DNA from: an uncultured Porphyromonadaceae bacterium
GTDB taxonomy: Bacteria > Bacteroidota > Bacteroidia > Bacteroidales > Muribaculaceae
Assembly (NCBI GenBank): GCA_947177015.1
Contig: CAMWSV010000003.1
Span: forward strand, 1 to 35,650
Reading direction: 5' to 3'
Length of the DNA: 35,650 nt
In this document: one piece after another, positions 1 to 9,244 of the stretch
How the letters are laid out: the number at the start of each line of letters is the position of its first letter
Numbering within the stretch: position 1 is the first letter of the stretch
The notes under the pieces: model-generated
The model's database searches: none
Told to the model about the DNA's origin: nothing
The model's input: only the letters and a program-made list of their open reading frames with translations
Program-made: the position numbers and the translations under genes

Positions 1-710
1 ATATAGGGATAGTCTTGCGCATCGTCAGCCGCGGTCCATCCCTTCCCTTTGATCCAGATAGCGCGGCAACCGATTGCCGATGCCGGAAGAATATCTTTTT
101 TATACGTATCCCCTATCACTACCACATCCTCCGGTGCCATTCCCAAGGCTTCGACTCCGAGTGAGAATATGGCGGGATCCGGCTTACGGATACCCACTAC
201 GGCACTCTCCACCACAGCATCGAAATATCGCGCCACATCGTATGCTGCGAGCACACTCTCCACATTACCGTAAAAATTCGACACCAGCACCATCGGATAT
301 TTCTCTCTGAGTGCTTCAAGCACCCTCCGGGCTTCCTCCACGCTGGCGCGCGCCATGCCGTCGCACGCATTGGCTATATCTCCGGCAATTATCTCCGGGG
401 ATTGACTAAAACTCCCGGCGACTTCGTCGCCTTCGGGGGAATGGGCGGCATAATGACGAAGTTCCACCAGGATCTTCTTATATAGTGTGGTGCGGAAATC
501 ATCTTCGGGCATGATGATACGCTCACGTGCCATGGCGCGCTCCCCCTCCACGTAAGCATCACGAAATAGCGTGCGGTCCACACCGTCGCCGAGCACGGCA
601 TGCCATCCGCGGAGCAGCACCTCACTCCAATGATCGCCGCGCGAATCGATAGTGCCGCCATAGTCGAAGATTATCCCCTTCACCCCCCTGCAATATTCTT
701 TAAGTGTCAT
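1..710 (-). CDS. HAD-superfamily hydrolase, partial (3' end beyond window)
   Basis: The first 236 residues are visible, reading MTLKEYCRGVKGIIFDYGG from the ATG at 710; the 3' end lies beyond base 1. HAD motifs are in order: motif I FDYGGTID (nucleophile Asp about residue 16), motif II Ser in VLVSNF, motif III Lys in IRKPDP, and motif IV Asp in VIGDTYKKD. The general acid/base Asp two residues after the nucleophile is Gly, as in the FDLGGV/FDLGNV subgroup of HAD-IA enzymes, so it is probably still an active phosphatase acting on a small phosphate ester. It starts 18 bp after the CDP-alcohol phosphatidyltransferase stop and is probably cotranscribed with it. A role in removing a phosphate from a lipid head group or its precursor is inferred from context only. 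Confidence 0.88.
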   Translation of the reverse strand, partial: MTLKEYCRGVKGIIFDYGGTIDSRGDHWSEVLLRGWHAVLGDGVDRTLFRDAYVEGERAMARERIIMPEDDFRTTLYKKILVELRHYAAHSPEGDEVAGSFSQSPEIIAGDIANACDGMARASVEEARRVLEALREKYPMVLVSNFYGNVESVLAAYDVARYFDAVVESAVVGIRKPDPAIFSLGVEALGMAPEDVVVIGDTYKKDILPASAIGCRAIWIKGKGWTAADDAQDYPY

Positions 711-728
711 TCGGCTCAGTGTTTAAGG

Positions 729-1676
729 TTATGCTTCTTTATTTTCGGGAATCCAGTCGTAAGCCTTACGACACAATCTCTCATGACGCCACATCATATA
801 TACGAGAATCACATTAAGCACAGTCAACTCAAACGCGAAATAAAGCCAGGGCATTCTGAAAATCAGTATCGCGGCAAAGAGGGCAAACGTGCGGGTGTTA
901 AACGACAGGATGTTAGTATATTTCATTAATCCCTTGCCTGCCTGACGAAACCTGTTGCGGAATTCCTGCGGCACATTATGTCCGTAGACTTCAAAGAGCC
1001 TGCGGCGCAGACGCTGCATGGCAGGAGTACGTTTCTCCTGTCCTACCGTATAGTTGATATAGAACGTAAGCACGAGTTTACGCCAAAAATCCCTCTTCCA
1101 ACTGAGAGAGGCGTATTTCTCGCGGAGTCCCTCTAAGGATTCGAGTTCGCTGCCCCCCTCGCCCTTTACGAAATAGAGATGAAACTGGCGGTAATAGTCA
1201 GCCATGGCGGCTTGAATGGCGTGAAATGCCCCCGTGACTACAGCGAGCACCCAGATAGCCCACTTATGATCCATGAAAAATTCACTCGTCACATTCTCAC
1301 GCAGGCAAATGGCGGCATAGATGCACACAAACCATATATCACCGCTCAATCCGTCGAGGATTCTCCCGAGCCTTGAATATTGGTGGGTCATTCGGGCGAG
1401 TTGACCATCGGCAGAGTCAAAACTGTCTGCCCACATCAGCAATATCACCCCTGCGAGGTTTATCCAGAAATTATTGAAATAGAAAGCCACAGCCGCACCG
1501 ATACCCAAGAAGATGGAAGCGATGGTGATAACGTTGGGGGTTATGCCCAATCTGCGGGCTATCTTCGCCCACACGAACCCTATAGGACGGTAAAATATGA
1601 GATCGAATGTCTCCTCAGTATCCATCGATTTGAGCGACGACCTATATTCGGCCCGCAGACGCCGGAAGGTATTCAT
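729..1676 (-). CDS. CDP-alcohol phosphatidyltransferase family membrane protein (variant motif)
   Basis: A 315-residue multi-pass membrane protein that should transfer a phospho-alcohol between a CDP-activated donor and a lipid or alcohol acceptor. The family signature lies at residues 87-113: D87, D90-G91, A94-R95, G104 and D108. The last Asp, expected at 112, is Gly, and an Asp follows at 113, so the final ligand or catalytic base is shifted by one. I checked this in the DNA (GAC GGA TTG AGC GGT GAT). The protein has about 60 residues on each side that minimal enzymes such as PgsA lack. Neighbours are an ATP-grasp protein (31 bp upstream) and a HAD hydrolase (18 bp downstream). The head group is unknown; the nearby nucleotidyltransferase suggests it, rather than the lipid, may be the CDP-activated partner. 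Confidence 0.85.
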   Translation of the reverse strand: MNTFRRLRAEYRSSLKSMDTEETFDLIFYRPIGFVWAKIARRLGITPNVITIASIFLGIGAAVAFYFNNFWINLAGVILLMWADSFDSADGQLARMTHQYSRLGRILDGLSGDIWFVCIYAAICLRENVTSEFFMDHKWAIWVLAVVTGAFHAIQAAMADYYRQFHLYFVKGEGGSELESLEGLREKYASLSWKRDFWRKLVLTFYINYTVGQEKRTPAMQRLRRRLFEVYGHNVPQEFRNRFRQAGKGLMKYTNILSFNTRTFALFAAILIFRMPWLYFAFELTVLNVILVYMMWRHERLCRKAYDWIPENKEA

Positions 1677-1707
1677 AAAAGTAGAAATGTGAGATACTAA
1701 TGTTTAA

Positions 1708-2634
1708 TTATCGGATGTTGCTATTGCCCGCAACTCGGCGCTCGCCTGTTTTTACTGCTGATTCCTCTTTAATGCGCTTGCGGATTATATTCAGCACATA
1801 CCTGGCGATAATGGGGGCTGCCTCTTCACGGCAGGGGGCGAAACTGGGCCAGTCGTTGAAGTCGATGATACTCATATCCCCTTCGCTGCTGATGATGACA
1901 TCGCCGCCATAAATATCCACTCCGGTGACTTCAGCCGCCTTGACACAAATCTCTTTCAGACGCGTCTCATCAAAATTATAGTGATGAGAGGCACCGTTGA
2001 TAAATTCATCCCCGAATTTGGAATGTCCCTCATCCAGTGGATAAAACCAGTAGAAGAACGATCCATCCTTAAGTCCGTAAAACTTAATCAGATCTCCGTC
2101 AAGATGCTTATTGATTACAGCGCGCCGAATTCCGCGATAGAAGAATTCGTGCAGCACTCCCTGAGTCTCCTCGATGTGCCGGCAGTAAGCCACGTCCTCC
2201 TTATGCTGCGCATGAAATTCGCCACGCTTCACCCAACAGCGTTCGTAGCCGCCGCGCACCAGTTCGGCTCGCGCATCGGAATTGGTGTCCACCATCAACG
2301 ATGGCGGATAAGGCACTCCGTTGGAGAGAAGCAGGAGTGTCATACGTTCCCGGGTGCAGTTGGCGATAGCATCGCCGGAGTTCACCACAATGATTCCGGA
2401 TTCCTCCAAATTGCGCAGTTTTTCGAGCGATTCCGGTTGTCGGCACATATTAAGAATCAGGTCAGCCTCAACATCCGGCTGATTCAGAAACTGCTCTTCA
2501 TTATATTGCAACACCTTGCAACCGCGGCGACGCAACTGATCCACCACCCCCTGCAGGATGGCGGCATCATTCCCTATATGATTCGGAGAGAACGCTCCGG
2601 CGCGCGATACGGCAATTATCTTTATTCTTGCCAC
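1708..2634 (-). CDS. ATP-grasp superfamily protein (RimK-like ligase fold)
   Basis: A 308-residue soluble protein. Its C-terminal part has ATP-grasp features: a nucleotide-binding Lys region (RCWVKRGEFHAQ), a second segment (AVINKHLDGDLIKFYGL), and metal-binding residues near GGDVIISSEGD and IDFNDWPSF, where Asp and Asn take the usual Glu/Asn roles. ATP-grasp ligases join a carboxylate to an amine or thiol through an acyl phosphate. The likely start is GTG at 2634, giving MARIKII; I see no better ATG. It lies between a nucleotidyltransferase (146 bp upstream) and a CDP-alcohol phosphatidyltransferase (31 bp downstream). That suggests it adds an amino-acid-like group to a head group or its precursor, which is inference. 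The substrate is unknown. Confidence 0.75.
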   Translation of the reverse strand: MARIKIIAVSRAGAFSPNHIGNDAAILQGVVDQLRRRGCKVLQYNEEQFLNQPDVEADLILNMCRQPESLEKLRNLEESGIIVVNSGDAIANCTRERMTLLLLSNGVPYPPSLMVDTNSDARAELVRGGYERCWVKRGEFHAQHKEDVAYCRHIEETQGVLHEFFYRGIRRAVINKHLDGDLIKFYGLKDGSFFYWFYPLDEGHSKFGDEFINGASHHYNFDETRLKEICVKAAEVTGVDIYGGDVIISSEGDMSIIDFNDWPSFAPCREEAAPIIARYVLNIIRKRIKEESAVKTGERRVAGNSNIR

Positions 2635-2780
2635 GATATATGGTAATTTTATATGCTATTCTCTAATTATCAATCTACGGATGATTAGAAAACTCACTCT
2701 TATTATTTAATCTTTAAGTAAATAAATTCCTCCCACCTATCCACACTTTCCCCCTCATATATCTTCTACATCCCCTCTAT

Positions 2781-3518
2781 CTATTCATTCCCTTCGCGGA
2801 GAAATTCGCAGGCTGTCTCGATATCGGCGGCATGATCCACGTCGATAATCTTTCCCATCGGGAATGCCCTCACATCAAGCCCCTCACTCACCAGCCGGCG
2901 CTGATAGTTCCTCATCCGGCTCACATCCTGCGCCATACACCTGCGAAGCACTCCGATAGCCGCATCGCTCAATCCATATATACCCCCTGAGATATAGCGT
3001 GCATCTTCCGGACACTCATCCAGAAATGCCTCAATACGCATATCCTCGGCATCAGCCACAACCCATAGAGGTTTCTCATCGTCCACGAAGCCGGTCACAG
3101 CCATCATCACGTCAGTAGACTCGGGAGCGCTCTCCCATGCCTCAACATAGCGCCTGAAATCAGATTCATGGAAAATCGTATCCACCGTAGTGGCAATCCA
3201 TCTGCCGTGTCCCTCCATCTCTTCGGCTATCTCAGCCATAGTGTGCATCGACGAGGGGGTAGTCTTCACCTTCAGTATTAATTCCGGGGCATGACCGGCA
3301 TCTACAGACTCGAACTGATAATCAGCGAGATATTCTTTCACTTCCGGCATAAATTCATTGACACACACCACGATGCGCTTAGCGCCGCATCTTGCGAAGA
3401 TTTCGAGCAGACGTGATATCATGGGTTGATGATCTATCTCCACAAGAGGTTTCGGGAGCATTACCCCCTCCTGCGCGAGTCGCGAACCCTCACCGGCGGC
3501 TATGATTGCGAAATTCAT
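2781..3518 (-). CDS. NTP transferase (sugar/polyol-phosphate nucleotidyltransferase family)
   Basis: A 245-residue single-domain nucleotidyltransferase. The N-terminus IIAAGEGSRL with a following LPKPLVEI is the classic NTP-binding signature at residues 4-28. The metal-binding Asp is probably in the TTVDTIF segment. IIDVDHAADIETA near the C-terminus is typical of nucleotidyltransferase ends. Such enzymes couple CTP or UTP to a phosphorylated sugar, polyol or choline. The start is 8 bp after the pdxA stop, so it is translated from the rlmN-pdxA message. In archaeal di-myo-inositol-phosphate synthesis a similar domain makes CDP-inositol for a CDP-alcohol phosphatidyltransferase. The gene two steps downstream here is such an enzyme, so a CDP-polyol product is my favoured inference. 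Confidence 0.85.
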   Translation of the reverse strand: MNFAIIAAGEGSRLAQEGVMLPKPLVEIDHQPMISRLLEIFARCGAKRIVVCVNEFMPEVKEYLADYQFESVDAGHAPELILKVKTTPSSMHTMAEIAEEMEGHGRWIATTVDTIFHESDFRRYVEAWESAPESTDVMMAVTGFVDDEKPLWVVADAEDMRIEAFLDECPEDARYISGGIYGLSDAAIGVLRRCMAQDVSRMRNYQRRLVSEGLDVRAFPMGKIIDVDHAADIETACEFLREGNE

Positions 3519-3526
3519 ATTGTAGT

Positions 3527-4729
3527 TTACTTATAGAGGGGGTTGGAGGTCATTTCTTCATATTGTGCGCGCCGGCGATAGATGTCGATGGCGCTGAAAA
3601 TAGCGTTGCGCATAGAGGCTGCATCGGCTTTCTTCTTTCCGGCTATGTCGTAGGCTGTGCCATGATCGGGCGAAGTGCGGATTATATCGAGGCCGGCAGT
3701 GAAGTTCACACCCTCGGCACCTGCAAGCGTCTTAAACGGCGCAAGTCCCTGATCATGATACATGGCGAGCACTCCGTCAAACTTCTTCCACTCGCCGCTG
3801 CCGAAGAAGCCGTCGGCGGCATACGGTCCGAAAGCGAGTATGCCGTTATCGCGAAGCATACCGAGCGCCGGGAGTATCACCTCCTTCTCTTCGCTGCCGA
3901 GCAGACCATTGTCGCCTGCATGGGGATTGAGCGAGAGCACCGCAATGCGCGGACGGTCGCAACCGAAGTCGCGACGCAGTGTATCATCGAAACGGCGCAC
4001 TGCATCCACCACATTTTCAATCGTGACGTGGCTGCTGATTTCCGAGAGTGGGAGATGAGTGGTGAGCAATGCCACCCGCAGGTCATCATTAAAGAGAATC
4101 ATCTGCGCCTTCGGTTGCAATTCTCCGAAAAGATCGTCATTAACCTCTTTTTTCGGCTCCTCTTTTTCGTTTCCCTTTTCGGCATCCTCTACATTTTCGA
4201 CTTCAGTATTCTCGTCGGAGTCAGACTCCACCGGCTCAGCATTATCTTCAACTTCTGCACTATCTTCAATAGCATCATCGGAGTCGTCCTCTGCGAGCCG
4301 CACTTCGAGATATTCCGTATGTCCGGGGAAGTGGAAACCCTCAGACTGGATAGTTGCTTTATTAATCGGAGCGGTGACGAGCACATCGATATCACCTTCC
4401 TCATACGCTCTGAGGGCTGCTTCGAGGGCTTCAAACGCACTGCGTCCTGCCGTCGCCGACGCCACTCCATATTCGGGCTTCAAGGCTTCTTCGCCCACGC
4501 TGACGAGATTGATGGCATCTTCTTTGGCATCCGCGGCGGAAGCCACGGGTACGAAACTGAATTTCTCACCTTTCAGGCGCTGCATATTGCCGAGCATGAT
4601 CCCTTTATTGGCGAAGATCACGGGAGTAAACATCTCCGTCATACCCTCCGGGGCAAGTGCCTTTATAATTACTTCAGGTCCGATACCATTGGCATCCCCT
4701 TGAGTGATTCCTACTTTGATTTTTTCCAT
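3527..4729 (-). CDS. pdxA: 4-hydroxythreonine-4-phosphate dehydrogenase, with acidic insertion
   Basis: PdxA oxidises 4-phosphohydroxy-L-threonine with NAD, and the product is used by PdxJ in the DXP-dependent route to pyridoxal phosphate. Family landmarks are the N-terminus KVGITQGDANGIGPEVI, the metal-site His in PGHTEY (about 137), NPHAGDNG and MYHDQGLAPFK. I start it at the ATG at 4729 (MEKIKVG); a GTG 30 bp upstream would extend it into rlmN and is less likely. At 400 residues it is longer than the usual 330-360. The excess is an acidic, low-complexity block at residues 146-205, between the HTEY strand and ILFNDDLRVALLTTHLP. It follows rlmN with a short gap, so it is probably in the same operon. 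Confidence 0.93.
   Translation of the reverse strand: MEKIKVGITQGDANGIGPEVIIKALAPEGMTEMFTPVIFANKGIMLGNMQRLKGEKFSFVPVASAADAKEDAINLVSVGEEALKPEYGVASATAGRSAFEALEAALRAYEEGDIDVLVTAPINKATIQSEGFHFPGHTEYLEVRLAEDDSDDAIEDSAEVEDNAEPVESDSDENTEVENVEDAEKGNEKEEPKKEVNDDLFGELQPKAQMILFNDDLRVALLTTHLPLSEISSHVTIENVVDAVRRFDDTLRRDFGCDRPRIAVLSLNPHAGDNGLLGSEEKEVILPALGMLRDNGILAFGPYAADGFFGSGEWKKFDGVLAMYHDQGLAPFKTLAGAEGVNFTAGLDIIRTSPDHGTAYDIAGKKKADAASMRNAIFSAIDIYRRRAQYEEMTSNPLYK
4115..4294 (-). other. Acidic low-complexity insertion inside PdxA
   Basis: Codons 146-205 of pdxA encode a stretch dominated by Glu and Asp, with some Ser, Val and Asn, ending in a Lys/Glu-mixed part (KGNEKEEPKKE). In the E. coli enzyme, as I recall it, the residues before and after this point are almost adjacent. 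The frame stays open and the flanking family motifs resume correctly, so this is an in-frame insertion rather than a frameshift. It is probably a disordered surface loop. Confidence 0.8.
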
Positions 4730-4755
4730 TTTATTGTAAAATAGGGCCTTACATT

Positions 4756-5787
4756 TCACTTAGCCAACATTCCACATGCAGCCTCGATGTCTTCACCGCG
4801 CGAAGCGCGTATGGTGGCTGTGATGCCATGCTGATTGAGTATGTTTCTGAACATAATCATGCGTTCCTCCGAACAAGGCTGAAGATCGATACCCGGGATA
4901 GCATGATAGCGTATAAGATTGACACGGCAGTCGATGTTGCCGATAAGTTTTATTAGAGCGTTGGCATGAGCCACATCATCATTGACCCCGCGCCACATGA
5001 TATATTCGAGCGATAGACGGCGCTGATGCGAGAAGTCATAACCGGCGAGCAGATGCATCACGCCGGAAATGGGGAAAGCCTTCTGAGCCGGCATCATCGC
5101 GGCGCGCTCGCGAGGATCGGGAGTGTGGACGCTGATAGCCACGTGCACCTGTGTCTTATCCAGCAGATCCTTCAGTTCGGGGAGTTTACCCACGGTACTC
5201 ACCGTGATGCGCTTCGGGCTCCACGCCAGTCCCCACGGAGCAGTGAGGATGTCGATCACGCGCTTCACCGCGCTGAAGTTATCGAGCGGCTCGCCCATAC
5301 CCATGAAGACGATATTGGATAACGGCGTGGCGGGCGCACATCCCGGAGCGGGAGCGGGCGGTATGCTAAGAATCTGATTTATGATTTCGGCGGCTGAGAG
5401 TTGAGCCTTGAATCCCATCTTGCCCGTAGCGCAGAAGTAGCAATTCATCTTGCATCCCGCCTGCGATGACACACACAGAGTGGCTCTGTCTCTATCCGGG
5501 ATATAGACAGATTCTATCTGCCTGCCCCCTGCCACTGCAAACACATACTTCACTGTGCCGTCCTGACTCTTCGACGCCTTGATCGGAGCAGTACGTCCCA
5601 CGCAATATTTTTCTGCCAGCAGAGCCTTATTCTTTTTCGAAAGGTTTGCCATCTCGTCAAATGATACTGCACGCTTGCTATAAATCCATTCTGCAAGTTG
5701 CCTGCCCACGAATTTGGGCATCCCCAATTCGACAGCCACATCCTGCAGCCCCTTTTCTGTCATCCCTATCAATGGAATCTTTTCCAT
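4756..5787 (-). CDS. rlmN: 23S rRNA (adenine-2503-C2)-methyltransferase / tRNA A37 C2-methyltransferase
   Basis: A radical SAM enzyme that methylates C2 of A2503 in 23S rRNA and, in E. coli, A37 of some tRNAs. At 343 residues it has normal family length. The 4Fe-4S cluster motif CxxxCxxC is C112, C116 and C119, in the context SSQAGCKMNCYFCATGKMG. GEPLDN and the catalytic Cys near the C-terminus (C338, in EAACGML) are present. The start at 5787 gives MEKIPLIGM and a compact N-terminal domain. pdxA begins 26 bp downstream of its stop, so the two are probably cotranscribed. No convincing promoter could be placed in the 138 bp upstream. Confidence 0.96.
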   Translation of the reverse strand: MEKIPLIGMTEKGLQDVAVELGMPKFVGRQLAEWIYSKRAVSFDEMANLSKKNKALLAEKYCVGRTAPIKASKSQDGTVKYVFAVAGGRQIESVYIPDRDRATLCVSSQAGCKMNCYFCATGKMGFKAQLSAAEIINQILSIPPAPAPGCAPATPLSNIVFMGMGEPLDNFSAVKRVIDILTAPWGLAWSPKRITVSTVGKLPELKDLLDKTQVHVAISVHTPDPRERAAMMPAQKAFPISGVMHLLAGYDFSHQRRLSLEYIMWRGVNDDVAHANALIKLIGNIDCRVNLIRYHAIPGIDLQPCSEERMIMFRNILNQHGITATIRASRGEDIEAACGMLAK

Positions 5788-5925
5788 ATCAATATCTTAT
5801 ACTTTTAATAGTATGTGTTTGCCAATTAGTTTGACACTAATATGTTGCTATTTTTCTCAAAATTTAATATTGCCTACGAATTATATTGCGCTCACACTGA
5901 TTGCCACCGTGACTTTTCCGGAAGT

Positions 5926-6810
5926 TCATTTCAGCGTATGCAGTTCGTAGGTCTTCTCTCTCAGATATTTGCCCAAAGCCTCGGCATCACCTTTGAATCT
6001 CGCCTGCTCCTCGGGCATAATAGGCTCCCCTATCGAGATATGAATCTCCTTGCCCTTCTTGCTGAAGAGTTCGCGGGGCAGCATCAATGAGCGCAGCGGC
6101 CAGCAGATATGACCGAGCAGATTAAACATAAAGCGGTTGTTGCCATGAAAATAGATAGGTATCACGGGCACTTTGGCACGCGCAATTATTTCCAACACCG
6201 ATTTCTGCCACGGGCGGTCCACCAGGAAGTTATGGCGGTCCGTCTTCGACATAGCCCCGGCGGGGAAGAAACCTACGGGATGACCATCCTTGAGTTGACG
6301 CAATGCCTGACGGATCCCATTGACGGATACCTTTCGCTTTGACGGATCGTCTGATTGCCACGCGTCTACAGTGATGAAGTTATCACGCATGGCCCAAAGT
6401 CTGCCGAGAATCATATTCACCATCACTTTATATTCGGGGCGATAGCGGGTCACAAGATTTATCAGTGCGATTCCATCCAGACTTCCGAAGGGGTGATTGC
6501 TCACCGTGATGAATGGTCCATCGGGGAATTCCGCCAAAATCCGCTCATTGTCCACGCGGAGCGGAGTCTTGAACTCATCTTCTATAAGATGGCGCGAAAA
6601 CTCCGGGCCGGGAGTCGATGCCCACGCGGCATGCACGCGGTTCACTTCATCTATCTGAAGCCAGTGAAGCACTTTACCCACAAGTTTTTCATGCCCCTTG
6701 AGTTTGGGCACCATGTCAGTGACATCAGTCACACTGATCACCTCACGGTTCGTATCTTCGGCAGGAGCGGGAGCCGCCTTCTCCTGTGTATTTTCGATAG
6801 GTTTTTCCAT
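5926..6810 (-). CDS. Lysophospholipid-type acyltransferase (PlsC/LPLAT superfamily)
   Basis: A 294-residue acyltransferase that should move an acyl chain from acyl-ACP or acyl-CoA to a lipid alcohol or amine. The catalytic motif is NHPFGSLDG at residues 105-113, with His106 and Asp112. The spacing is HX5D, as in hemolysin/OlsA-like Bacteroidota members, not the HX4D of PlsC. FFPAGAMS about residue 178 matches the substrate-binding block. The first 25 residues are Glu/Pro/Ala-rich and probably disordered. It is the last gene behind the pgpA-like promoter, 37 bp after the PAP2 gene. It could acylate a glycerophospholipid, or make an aminolipid like the Bacteroides GlsA enzyme; the partner N-acyltransferase of that pathway is not next to it. 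Confidence 0.85.
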   Translation of the reverse strand: MEKPIENTQEKAAPAPAEDTNREVISVTDVTDMVPKLKGHEKLVGKVLHWLQIDEVNRVHAAWASTPGPEFSRHLIEDEFKTPLRVDNERILAEFPDGPFITVSNHPFGSLDGIALINLVTRYRPEYKVMVNMILGRLWAMRDNFITVDAWQSDDPSKRKVSVNGIRQALRQLKDGHPVGFFPAGAMSKTDRHNFLVDRPWQKSVLEIIARAKVPVIPIYFHGNNRFMFNLLGHICWPLRSLMLPRELFSKKGKEIHISIGEPIMPEEQARFKGDAEALGKYLREKTYELHTLK

Positions 6811-6847
6811 ATTGATACCTTTCTATAAATTAAAGCGGGCTGATAAT

Positions 6848-7798
6848 TTAAGCGGATTTGCCGGATATGTAAGCGGCATAACTATTCAGCCAACTGCGGA
6901 ATCCGGGGAGTCGCATCAGCAGATATTCAAAGAGGCAATAGCCCAGGAGCGAAACCCCTATTCCTCCCAACACATCCAGCAGGTAATGATGTGAGGTGTA
7001 GACGGCTGTGGTCCATATACCTGCCGTCACCACCCCGAGAATGATTTTCCAAGCCATACTGCTATGGGCTTTCAGGGCATACAGGAACGCCACAAACGTA
7101 TATGCAGAGTGAAGCGACGGCATAGCCGCGAATACATTGGCATTTCTTGCATAAAGCGCATTGAAGATGCCCAGACCCGTCATATCATCAAATGCTCCGA
7201 GACCTGCCACATCGCCGGGAGTGCCGGTAATCATCTCGAACCCATATTTTGCCACATACCATGGCGGAGCGGCAGGATGTATATAGTAGCCGGCAAATCC
7301 GAGCAGGTTCACCAGAAGAAACACCAAGGCGAAGTGCAGATATACCTCGGTCTTGCCGGTGAAATATAGCCATAATCCGAAGAAAATGGGGAGCGGAACC
7401 CAGCACAGATAGAATATTCCGCTCAAAAAATCCATCAGAGCACTGCGGTGCAACGCGAAAAATTCGTTGGGTGTCAACAATGTTCCGTCGGCGGCAGTGA
7501 TGCCGAAGAGGTCTTTCTCAGTCTGATAAATTCCCTCCACATCTACCGGATTCACCTCATAGTTAGGGAGGAGATTCATCCAGTCGTAGGATATTCCGAA
7601 GAGGAAAAACGGGAGCAGAGCCACAATCAGGCGACGCGTCGAAGGGAGGGCGAAATAGAGTGCCGCCATAGCGATGGCGAGGACGAGATGTTCCGGACGA
7701 AACCCTATGAAGAGTATCGTTACGGTGAGCCAGACGGCAATCCCCGCCACACACCACAATGCTTCCTTAAAGCGCGGACTCTGATATTTCATTTCCAA
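6848..7798 (-). CDS. PAP2-family, Aur1/inositol-phosphorylceramide-synthase-like membrane protein
   Basis: A 316-residue protein with about six to eight membrane segments. The three C-terminal blocks match the Aur1 (IPC synthase) branch of the PAP2 superfamily more closely than PgpB: HPAAPPWY, AAMPSLHSAY (catalytic His) and YTSHHYLLDVLGG (His and Asp of the triad). Fungal Aur1 transfers phosphoinositol from PI to ceramide; a bacterial equivalent would transfer it to dihydroceramide. It lies 68 bp after the canonical CDP-alcohol phosphatidyltransferase and 37 bp before the acyltransferase. A PgpA-like gene, a phosphatidyltransferase and an Aur1-like gene together recall the B. thetaiotaomicron inositol-lipid locus (BT_1522-BT_1526, from memory). 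I see no myo-inositol-phosphate synthase gene here. Confidence 0.87.
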   Translation of the reverse strand: MEMKYQSPRFKEALWCVAGIAVWLTVTILFIGFRPEHLVLAIAMAALYFALPSTRRLIVALLPFFLFGISYDWMNLLPNYEVNPVDVEGIYQTEKDLFGITAADGTLLTPNEFFALHRSALMDFLSGIFYLCWVPLPIFFGLWLYFTGKTEVYLHFALVFLLVNLLGFAGYYIHPAAPPWYVAKYGFEMITGTPGDVAGLGAFDDMTGLGIFNALYARNANVFAAMPSLHSAYTFVAFLYALKAHSSMAWKIILGVVTAGIWTTAVYTSHHYLLDVLGGIGVSLLGYCLFEYLLMRLPGFRSWLNSYAAYISGKSA

Positions 7799-7866
7799 TT
7801 TTTTTATTTCAACTGTTCTTAATGACGATTTTTGAAATTCATATCGGGATTTTCAGAAATCTGCCG

Positions 7867-8553
7867 TTACTGCATTTTCTCCATAGCGCGACGGCAATGC
7901 TGAATGCGGGCTGCGGCGGTGATATTGGCAAAGACGGCAATCAGCGTCATGGCACCCGCCAGCACCAGATTTGCCCACTCCACTCCTGCCTGGCCGAGGA
8001 TTCCGGTGAGAATCACACCCAGGCATGTCACCACCACCCGCTCAGGGCGTTGCATGAATCCGATCTTACATTCGATACCCAACCCTTCGGCACGTGCTCG
8101 CACATAACTCACGAGCAACGACCCGATGATAGCCATATATGTGATGAGGGCTTCCCAGAGTCCGCCAAACTGAATGAAGTAATATGTCACGCCGCCAAGA
8201 CTGATAAGTTCGCAGTATCTGTCGAGCACGCTGTCATACATCGCTCCGAATTTCGATACCATATTGCCGAGACGCGCCACCTGCCCGTCGAGCATATCGA
8301 AAAGTGAGAAAAGTATGATCACTACGCCCGCCCACGTCACGAGTGAATAGGGCACGATTCCGGTATGTCCGGCAACGTAACCGGCCCGTATCAGCAAAGC
8401 GGCTCCGAGCACCTGCCCCAACATTCCGATAGTGGTCACCATATTGGGTGTGATACCGCACTTTATCATAAGGCGAACAAGTGGATTTATCACTACATAT
8501 ATCCCTTGCTGCAGAGAATCACGTCCCTGCTTAGAACGTTGTTTTAAATTCAT
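7867..8553 (-). CDS. CDP-alcohol phosphatidyltransferase, probable phosphatidylinositol-phosphate synthase
   Basis: A 228-residue integral membrane enzyme with the full family signature at residues 86-111: D86, D89-G90, A93-R94, G103, D107 and D111, at standard spacing. The enzyme displaces CMP from CDP-diacylglycerol with an alcohol. Context favours inositol-1-phosphate as acceptor, giving phosphatidylinositol phosphate, which the upstream PgpA-like phosphatase could convert to PI for the downstream Aur1-like transferase. PgsA (glycerol-3-phosphate as acceptor) is the main alternative and cannot be excluded from sequence alone. It is separated from the pgpA-like gene by a 178 bp AT-rich gap containing a short palindrome at 8625-8638. 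Confidence 0.87.
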   Translation of the reverse strand: MNLKQRSKQGRDSLQQGIYVVINPLVRLMIKCGITPNMVTTIGMLGQVLGAALLIRAGYVAGHTGIVPYSLVTWAGVVIILFSLFDMLDGQVARLGNMVSKFGAMYDSVLDRYCELISLGGVTYYFIQFGGLWEALITYMAIIGSLLVSYVRARAEGLGIECKIGFMQRPERVVVTCLGVILTGILGQAGVEWANLVLAGAMTLIAVFANITAAARIQHCRRAMEKMQ

Positions 8554-8624
8554 TATCTTATAAATTTTGTATAATTATTTAATAAGATATTTTTTACTAA
8601 GATTATATTTGAAATAAGTAAGAG

Positions 8625-8638
8625 GGTAATTTATTACC
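8625..8638. promoter_or_regulatory. Short palindrome in the gap before the phosphatidyltransferase gene
   Basis: GGTAAT and ATTACC arms of six bases flank a central TT. It sits 72 bp before the phosphatidyltransferase start, in an AT-rich gap between two genes of the lipid cluster. It could be a repressor site or chance in AT-rich DNA. A TAAGTTTG box lies just upstream in the transcribed direction, but I could not find a good -33 element for it. Confidence 0.25.
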
Positions 8639-8731
8639 TGCCTTACAAACTTATTCAGTAAATCCAAGAGTCATATCCATCAGTAAATATGAGAGTTATT
8701 CCCTCCGGATTCAGATTATTTACAAGTGGAA

Positions 8732-9244
8732 TCAGATGATATTGACGAGCACTTCGAGTATCACCGCCGAGTATATAGCCGCAAGAATATCATCCGCCAT
8801 CATGCCGTAGCCCCCGGGCAGTGATTCCATCTTGCGGATGCCGAGCGGCTTGAATATATCGAAGAATCGGAACAGCGCCAGCGACACGATGATGAGCCAC
8901 CACGGACATTCCTCGACTCCGCGACAAAGGGGCAATAGGGAGATCCATTGACCCACAGTCTCATCCGCACATGCCGCCACGGGGTCTTTGCCCCAATATT
9001 TCTCTGCTTCGGTGCTCGCCCACGTGCCTGCAACGCAATAGATTATTGCCGCCGCTAACGTAACGATAAACGATACCATCGGATTCACCCACAGATACAA
9101 TGGCAACCATAACACTATGGCAAGCAACGCTCCCCATGTGCCGGGCGCTACCGGGAGAAAGCCCACTCCGAAACTCGTGGCTATCAATTTCGGAATTATC
9201 GGAAACGGGCGTCCGGCTATATTCACCGGTTTACGATTTTTCAT
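8732..9244 (-). CDS. Phosphatidylglycerophosphatase A family lipid phosphatase
   Basis: A 170-residue membrane protein with all PgpA blocks: GFLPVAPGTWGAL near the N-terminus, KDPVAACADETVGQWI, and FRFFDIFKPLGIRKME followed by PGGYGMMADD. PgpA removes the phosphate of phosphatidylglycerol phosphate; in this setting it may instead dephosphorylate phosphatidylinositol phosphate. It is first in the lipid operon, with a strong Bacteroidota promoter 125 bp upstream of its start. I leave the symbol empty because the substrate (PGP or PIP) cannot be decided here. Confidence 0.9.
   Translation of the reverse strand: MKNRKPVNIAGRPFPIIPKLIATSFGVGFLPVAPGTWGALLAIVLWLPLYLWVNPMVSFIVTLAAAIIYCVAGTWASTEAEKYWGKDPVAACADETVGQWISLLPLCRGVEECPWWLIIVSLALFRFFDIFKPLGIRKMESLPGGYGMMADDILAAIYSAVILEVLVNII

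What the first reader, a model, noticed from the sequence alone, without database searches (positions are those of the whole stretch)
1..3518. Candidate pathway for an undescribed lipid head group
A nucleotidyltransferase, ATP-grasp protein, CDP-alcohol phosphatidyltransferase and HAD phosphatase lie in order on one strand. Known: in archaeal inositol-phosphate solute synthesis, a nucleotidyltransferase makes CDP-inositol for a CDP-alcohol phosphatidyltransferase, followed by dephosphorylation. By analogy this cluster may make a CDP-polyol, transfer it to a lipid or polyol, and decorate it with an amino-acid-like group by ATP-grasp chemistry.
Basis: inference. Interest (0 to 1): 0.65.

Follow-up and report, generated by a model that had tools for sequence, protein, structure and literature searches.

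The report
Alternative inositol-lipid operon with ATP-grasp enzyme

Summary
The four genes are real, same-strand and strongly conserved. They are not an undescribed head group: they match the "putative alternative inositol lipid cluster" proposed for Bacteroides vulgatus and Prevotella in 2022 (PMC9246714), i.e. nucleotidyltransferase, CDP-alcohol phosphotransferase and HAD beside myo-inositol-phosphate synthase (MIPS). The window stops at a contig end; in relatives the next gene is MIPS.

New here: (1) The ATP-grasp gene, not mentioned in that paper, is a core component. Among 198 Bacteroidales genomes, all 19 with MIPS but no PIP synthase have it; 7 genomes with PIP synthase lack it. It is fused to the nucleotidyltransferase in three genomes, in one also to the CDP-alcohol enzyme. 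(2) Its active-site motif (DxNDWPSF; Asp and Asn in 112/112) and best sequence match point to inositol phosphate kinases, although fold and family-model neighbours are mostly ligases. (3) In one genus it survives under purifying selection beside PIP synthase without the CDP-inositol genes. (4) The window carries both inositol-lipid clusters in tandem. (5) The CDP-alcohol enzyme and the HAD each lack a canonical catalytic Asp.

Best reading: a Kennedy-type CDP-inositol route with an ATP-grasp inositol(-phosphate) kinase. No enzyme of this route has been assayed.

The parts
3..710 (-). HAD-superfamily (subfamily IA) protein, cut at its C-terminus by the contig end
   Evidence: PF00702 E 4.6e-18; motif DYGGTID with Gly at the Asp+2 position in 106/106 relatives
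729..1676 (-). CDP-alcohol phosphotransferase (315 aa), predicted to transfer phosphoinositol from CDP-inositol to a lipid
   Evidence: PF01066 E 2.1e-12; nearest solved structures AF2299, choline/ethanolamine phosphotransferase, IPCT-DIPPS; fourth signature Asp replaced by Gly in 110/112
1708..2634 (-). ATP-grasp enzyme (308 aa), most likely an inositol or inositol-phosphate kinase
   Evidence: best profile match ITPK 1z2n E 2.5e-7; D258 and N260 in 112/112; model pLDDT 91; fusions with NTP and transferase
2781..3518 (-). nucleotidyltransferase (245 aa), predicted inositol-phosphate cytidylyltransferase
   Evidence: PF12804, PF00483; profile matches include LicC and inositol-1-phosphate cytidylyltransferases 2xme, 4jd0, 4mnd, among other sugar nucleotidyltransferases
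3527..4759 (-). PdxA, usual upstream neighbour; probably a co-transcribed housekeeping gene
   Evidence: TIGR00557 E 1.7e-101; present in 91 of 117 loci
5926..6810 (-). lyso-lipid O-acyltransferase-like gene, neighbour shared with hybrid inositol-lipid operons
   Evidence: PF19576, PF01553; order
6848..7798 (-). PAP2 protein, phosphoinositol dihydroceramide synthase homologue (BT_1522 type)
   Evidence: NF052609 477.1 bits, curated cut-off 480
7867..8553 (-). phosphatidylinositol phosphate synthase homologue (BT_1523 type)
   Evidence: NF052561 E 1.3e-74, 250.8 bits, below the cut-off of 350
8732..9244 (-). PgpA-like phosphatase (BT_1525 type, candidate PIP phosphatase)
   Evidence: PF04608 E 1.4e-38

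Best explanation
The genes belong to the alternative, CDP-inositol (Kennedy-type) inositol-lipid pathway of Bacteroidales. MIPS, linked in relatives just beyond where this contig ends, makes D-inositol 3-phosphate. The nucleotidyltransferase activates an inositol phosphate with CTP. The CDP-alcohol phosphotransferase moves phosphoinositol onto a lipid (diacylglycerol or dihydroceramide). The ATP-grasp enzyme is a core partner and most likely a kinase of inositol or inositol phosphate. Working hypothesis for the kinase plus HAD pair: they move or add a phosphate on the ring so that the D-1 position, not the D-3 position phosphorylated by MIPS, ends up in the lipid phosphodiester; alternatively the kinase salvages free inositol. 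Shown here: gene identity, order, co-occurrence, fusions, motif conservation. Inferred: every catalytic step and the substrate of the ATP-grasp enzyme. The pathway assignment alone is about 0.9 likely; the stated confidence is for the whole statement including the kinase.
For: MIPS linkage and co-occurrence: 23 of 24 ATP-grasp genomes have the usual MIPS and the 24th has a MIPS of another family directly after its HAD. All 19 MIPS genomes without PIP synthase carry the ATP-grasp and the transferase, 18 carry NTP. Gene fusions NTP-ATPgrasp-transferase (820 aa) and NTP-ATPgrasp. Kinase signature and ITPK as best profile match. Transferase and NTP profiles match CDP-inositol and CDP-choline enzymes. 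Published match of the gene set and detection of phosphoinositol dihydroceramide in species carrying it (PMC9246714).
Against: Foldseek and NCBIfam place the ATP-grasp nearest to Ddl, LysX/ArgX, PsnB and RimK ligases. In one genus the ATP-grasp persists without NTP or the transferase, which the phosphate-shift hypothesis does not explain. The HAD lacks the Asp+2 acid/base and the transferase lacks the fourth signature Asp, so ordinary phosphatase and transferase chemistry cannot be assumed. Nothing has been assayed.
Confidence: 0.55

Rival explanations
1. Same inositol-lipid pathway, but the ATP-grasp enzyme is a ligase that attaches an amino acid or other carboxylic acid to the inositol head group, giving a decorated inositol lipid.
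For: Fold neighbours are mostly ligases; all 24 aligned members hit rimK_fam weakly; PsnB is among the best profile matches. Retention beside PIP synthase without CDP-inositol genes fits an enzyme acting on the finished lipid.
Against: Asp instead of Glu in the metal-binding E/D-x-N motif in 112/112. Undecorated phosphoinositol dihydroceramide is detected in species with this cluster (PMC9246714).
Confidence: 0.22
2. The three-enzyme route exactly as published: NTP makes CDP-inositol from the MIPS product, the transferase makes PI-DAG, and the HAD acts as phosphoinositol dihydroceramide synthase; the ATP-grasp is a dispensable accessory.
For: Gene set and lipids as published (PMC9246714).
Against: The ATP-grasp is as constant as the other genes and fused between NTP and transferase. 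The HAD matches soluble subfamily IA HADs, with Gly at Asp+2, which is not an obvious lipid-to-lipid transferase.
Confidence: 0.13
3. The products are not membrane lipids but inositol phosphodiesters: a solute like di-inositol phosphate, or inositol phosphate added to capsule.
For: NTP and transferase resemble AF2299 and the Archaeoglobus IPCT-DIPPS enzyme. Inositol was found in B. thetaiotaomicron capsule (PMC9246714).
Against: MIPS genomes divide almost completely between PIP synthase and this cluster, which suggests the same end product; species with the cluster make inositol lipids (PMC9246714).
Confidence: 0.05

Closest known systems
Putative alternative inositol lipid cluster of Bacteroides vulgatus / Prevotella (Heaver et al. 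2022, PMC9246714)
   Same: NTP transferase, CDP-alcohol phosphotransferase and HAD beside MIPS, with a flippase-like (lysyl-PG synthase TM) gene often nearby
   Different: The ATP-grasp gene is not mentioned there (term absent from the text). Here it is shown to be a core gene. The window carries this cluster in tandem with the BT-like cluster, whereas the paper describes species with one or the other.
B. thetaiotaomicron inositol lipid cluster BT_1522-BT_1526
   Same: MIPS, inositol lipids as product; homologues of BT_1522, BT_1523 and BT_1525 lie in the same window (6848-9244)
   Different: Uses CDP-DAG plus inositol phosphate through a PIP intermediate; usually no ATP-grasp (7 of 11 PIP-synthase genomes lack it)
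Archaeal/Thermotoga IPCT-DIPPS route (CDP-inositol to di-inositol phosphate) and AF2299
   Same: Inositol-phosphate cytidylyltransferase followed by a CDP-alcohol phosphotransferase; both are profile matches
   Different: Product there is a solute; no ATP-grasp; the transferases there keep the fourth signature Asp
Inositol tris/tetrakisphosphate kinases (ITPK)
   Same: ATP-grasp fold, D-x-N-x-[FW]-P-S-[FY] active-site segment, best profile match
   Different: Overall similarity is weak and local; no match to the Pfam ITPK model; substrate unknown
CpgD / ceramide diphosphoglycerate route of Caulobacter (PMC12275187)
   Same: Nucleotidyltransferase of the COG1213 kind makes a CDP-activated group for a sphingolipid head group
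   Different: CDP-glycerate, with a ceramide kinase; no ATP-grasp or MIPS reported

Membership tests
Alternative inositol lipid cluster (Heaver 2022) | NTP transferase, CDP-alcohol phosphotransferase and HAD encoded together | tested here: met
Alternative inositol lipid cluster (Heaver 2022) | MIPS in the vicinity or in the genome | tested here: met
   MIPS on contig C215 of the same genome; directly downstream in relatives. Physical linkage in this genome cannot be seen because the contig ends.
Alternative inositol lipid cluster (Heaver 2022) | Produces phosphoinositol lipids without a PIP intermediate | not testable with these tools
   needs lipid analysis; unconfirmed in the literature too
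CDP-alcohol phosphotransferase superfamily | Signature D-x2-DG-x2-AR-x8-G-x3-D-x3-D | tested here: not met
   First three Asp met in 112/112; fourth Asp is Gly in 110/112 and Ser in 2, with Asp one residue later in 105/112. Pfam PF01066 above cut-off, so it is a homologue with a variant site.
ITPK inositol phosphate kinases | ATP-grasp fold with Asp, Asp-x-Asn metal site | tested here: met
   D245, D258, N260 in 112/112; alignment
ITPK inositol phosphate kinases | Match to the Pfam model PF05770 (named in PMC8024741) | tested here: not met
   Not among families matched by any of 24 members at E up to 1
ITPK inositol phosphate kinases | Phosphorylates inositol phosphates | not testable with these tools
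   needs an enzyme assay
RimK/LysX-type ATP-grasp ligases | Glu-x-Asn metal site as in the aligned ligases | tested here: not met
   Asp in 112/112 against Glu in PsnB, ArgX and RimK
RimK/LysX-type ATP-grasp ligases | Score above the family cut-off | tested here: not met
   rimK_fam 33.1 bits against cut-off 143.4
HAD phosphatases | Motif I DxDx[TV] with Asp+2 acid/base | tested here: not met
   D-[YF]-G in 106/106
BT-like inositol lipid cluster (second cluster in the window) | PIP synthase, PIP phosphatase and phosphoinositol dihydroceramide synthase homologues together | tested here: inconclusive
   Homologues of all three at 6848-9244, but PIP synthase 250.8 of 350 bits and synthase 477.1 of 480 bits fall below the curated cut-offs

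The most novel reading that the evidence does not exclude
The ATP-grasp enzyme is a bacterial inositol or inositol-phosphate kinase dedicated to membrane lipid synthesis: a hidden core step that, with the HAD, converts the D-3 phosphate made by MIPS into the D-1 linkage needed for a CDP-inositol route, or feeds scavenged inositol into either inositol-lipid route. Its partner transferase would be a variant CDP-alcohol enzyme that works without the usual fourth Asp.
Probability: 0.35. Interest if true: 0.75.

Novelty: new member of a known kind. Interest (0 to 1): 0.5.

Why it matters
Inositol synthesis and inositol lipids affect capsule expression, antimicrobial-peptide resistance and mouse colonisation in B. 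thetaiotaomicron (PMC9246714), yet the alternative route has not been confirmed by any enzyme assay. An ATP-grasp gene that is as constant as the other genes, and fused to two of them, changes the list of genes that must be expressed or deleted to test the route; a three-gene reconstitution may fail or give the wrong isomer. If it is an inositol kinase, it would be a bacterial ATP-grasp inositol kinase in lipid synthesis, where the review read here (PMC8024741) names ITPKs only from eukaryotes and archaea.

Tried and rejected
A transferase-HAD fusion in L066 looked likely from ORF length but is a frame overlap; the flippase-HAD fusion in L076 is real. Apparent absence of NTP in hybrid or split loci was mostly relocation: NTP sits elsewhere in those genomes, in some with HAD and MIPS. 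Apparent absence of MIPS in G207 was a MIPS of another family in the same operon. In genomes G005, G012 and G014 only a divergent NTP (about 31% identity) was found, next to MIPS; in the two ATP-grasp copies inspected there (L057, L068) D258 is Asn and N260 is Asp, suggesting decay or change of both; not resolved. Di-inositol-phosphate solute synthesis was considered and rated low. The promoter and terminator scan was uninformative. B. vulgatus itself could not be inspected, so the identity of BVU_RS13100 with the ATP-grasp gene is inferred from locus-tag spacing.
Full report
WHAT IS THERE. The window is one whole contig (G000:C3, 35,650 bases) of a genome whose nearest titled relatives are Muribaculaceae or Bacteroidales MAGs. 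Upstream on the same strand lie PdxA and RlmN, then an acyltransferase, a PAP2 protein scoring 477.1 bits (cut-off 480) against the phosphoinositol dihydroceramide synthase model, a PIP synthase homologue and PgpA.

CONSERVATION. ATP-grasp relatives were fetched from the same genus and order and from GTDB genomes. In 117 loci the labelled gene before the ATP-grasp is NTP in 106, and the labelled gene after it is the CDP-alcohol phosphotransferase in 108. NTP, ATP-grasp, transferase and HAD are consecutive in 100, ignoring an optional flippase-like gene, and MIPS is within reach in 87 (some records are counted twice, and many loci end at contig edges). The 430-442 aa gene after HAD is MIPS (PF07994, PF01658). 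In several families a lysyl-PG-synthase-TM gene sits between transferase and HAD. In the window's own genome MIPS is on the small contig C215.

RELATION TO PUBLISHED WORK. Heaver et al. 2022 (PMC9246714) described an alternative inositol lipid cluster in B. vulgatus and Prevotella: NTP transferase (BVU_RS13095), CDP-alcohol phosphatidyltransferase (RS13105) and HAD (RS13115) beside MIPS. They proposed CDP-inositol, then PI-DAG, then HAD-made PI-DHC, and reported PI-DHC in B. vulgatus and P. veroralis. The term ATP-grasp does not occur in the text. The tag gaps RS13100 and RS13110 fit the ATP-grasp and flippase positions seen here, but that is inference. A 2023 review (PMC10191378) still calls the route predicted and not fully characterised; no later confirmation was found in the papers searched.

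THE ATP-GRASP IS A CORE PART. In a common sample of 198 Bacteroidales genomes (strong hits only, sets compared), ATP-grasp is in 24, NTP in 23, transferase in 27, MIPS in 30 and PIP synthase in 11. ATP-grasp and NTP share 22 genomes (Fisher p = 7e-26, not corrected for phylogeny). All 19 MIPS genomes without PIP synthase have the ATP-grasp; 7 PIP-synthase genomes lack it; 4 have both, including the window's genome. The one ATP-grasp genome without the usual MIPS (G207) carries a MIPS of another family right after its HAD, and also a single 820-aa protein with NTP, ATP-grasp and transferase in that order. Two other genomes have NTP-ATPgrasp fusions. Where the set is split over two loci, the ATP-grasp stays with the transferase and NTP is found elsewhere, in several genomes with HAD and MIPS.

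AN EXCEPTION THAT CONSTRAINS FUNCTION. In the genus of G163, 13 of 14 species have the ATP-grasp. Only one of these, G240, has a true NTP and the transferase. The other 12 carry the ATP-grasp beside GtrA, PIP synthase and PAP2 genes, and usually MIPS. Their active-site residues are kept except D245, which is Glu in 12/12, and dN/dS is about 0.13, the same as for PIP synthase. So in this genus the enzyme is maintained without a CDP-inositol route. Its substrate is therefore likely to be common to both routes: inositol, inositol phosphate or the finished inositol lipid.

KINASE OR LIGASE. For a kinase: the family profile's best PDB hit is ITPK 1z2n (E 2.5e-7, made of several short stretches), with AtITPK4 and human ITPK1 also listed. 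The segment DFNDWPSF has Asp where the ligases in the same output have Glu (PsnB LELN, ArgX NELN, RimK MEVN), while ITPKs read VDVNVFPSY and VDLNYLPSF. The Asp and Asn are invariant in 112 distinct sequences. For a ligase: Foldseek on a confident model ranks Ddl, ArgX/LysX, PsnB and RimK first, all 24 aligned members hit rimK_fam weakly, and none hits the Pfam ITPK model. I rate kinase above ligase because of the metal-site signature and the inositol setting; this is not settled.

TRANSFERASE AND HAD. By profile the transferase is nearest to AF2299, choline/ethanolamine phosphotransferases and IPCT-DIPPS, and by fold, weakly, to AF2299. Two more distant relatives sit beside a glycerol-3-phosphate cytidylyltransferase-like gene (L179 scored; L180 by sequence resemblance only) and one beside an IspD-like gene (L181), which suggests that the wider family uses CDP-polyols as donors. 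The fourth Asp of the signature is Gly in 110/112, with Asp one residue on in 105/112, whereas the PIP synthase homologue in the same window keeps it. The HAD has Gly in place of the Asp+2 acid/base in 106/106. These departures make the published role of the HAD as PI-DHC synthase, and also a simple phosphatase role, uncertain.

MECHANISM PROPOSED. MIPS gives D-inositol 3-phosphate (established for MIPS enzymes). A CDP-inositol made directly from it would give a D-3 linkage, whereas PIP synthase gives the D-1 linkage with the 3-phosphate removed later. A kinase plus a phosphatase-like HAD could correct this, through free inositol to inositol 1-phosphate or through a bisphosphate. This would explain why the CDP-inositol route always carries the ATP-grasp and the PIP-synthase route usually does not. 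It does not explain the genus of G163, where salvage of inositol or a head-group modification would be needed. This paragraph is inference.

VERDICT. Observation confirmed. Interpretation partly right: CDP-polyol logic yes, undescribed head group no. The cluster is a member of a published but unproven pathway. The additions are the ATP-grasp as a core gene with a kinase-like signature, the tandem arrangement of both inositol-lipid clusters, and two non-canonical active sites.

Noticed in passing
window 3-9244; L086-L091 (L048 and L049 are the same records as L089 and L091): Both inositol-lipid clusters lie in tandem: PgpA, PIP synthase, PAP2, acyltransferase, RlmN, PdxA, NTP, ATP-grasp, transferase, HAD and, in the relatives, MIPS. 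The 2022 paper describes species as having one cluster or the other.
   Followed up: partly
L105, L116, L119, L147: Hybrid operons in which PgpA, GtrA, PIP synthase and PAP2 are inserted around or between ATP-grasp and transferase, with NTP elsewhere in the genome.
   Followed up: partly
L179:5650-9704; L180:4359-9215: A sister of the transferase sits with a glycerol-3-phosphate cytidylyltransferase-like gene, an SDR, a flippase-like gene and acyltransferases: a candidate CDP-glycerol route, perhaps to phosphoglycerol dihydroceramide.
   Followed up: partly
L181:6887-8552: Another sister of the transferase, after RlmN and PdxA, is followed by an IspD-like cytidylyltransferase instead of NTP.
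   Followed up: partly
L067:13106-14287: A MIPS of a different family (PF01658 only) occupies the usual MIPS position after HAD, next to the 820-aa triple fusion.
   Followed up: yes
L057:9042-9896; L068:4673-5539: ATP-grasp copies with the catalytic pair changed (D258N, N260D) in genomes whose only NTP candidate is divergent.
   Followed up: partly
L177:620-1897: An ORF joins NTP directly to the C-terminal part of the transferase with the ATP-grasp and transferase N-terminus missing; the genome has no strong MIPS hit. Looks like a decayed remnant.
   Followed up: no
L079:4832-8310; L080:4480-7988: Directly upstream of the cluster lies a second set: a PLP aminotransferase-like gene, a transferase paralogue with the canonical fourth Asp, another nucleotidyltransferase and a membrane protein; perhaps a parallel CDP-activated head-group route.
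   Followed up: no
window 3527-4759: PdxA carries an acidic, low-complexity insertion that splits its family match in two; it is 410 aa against about 360 in relatives.
   Followed up: no
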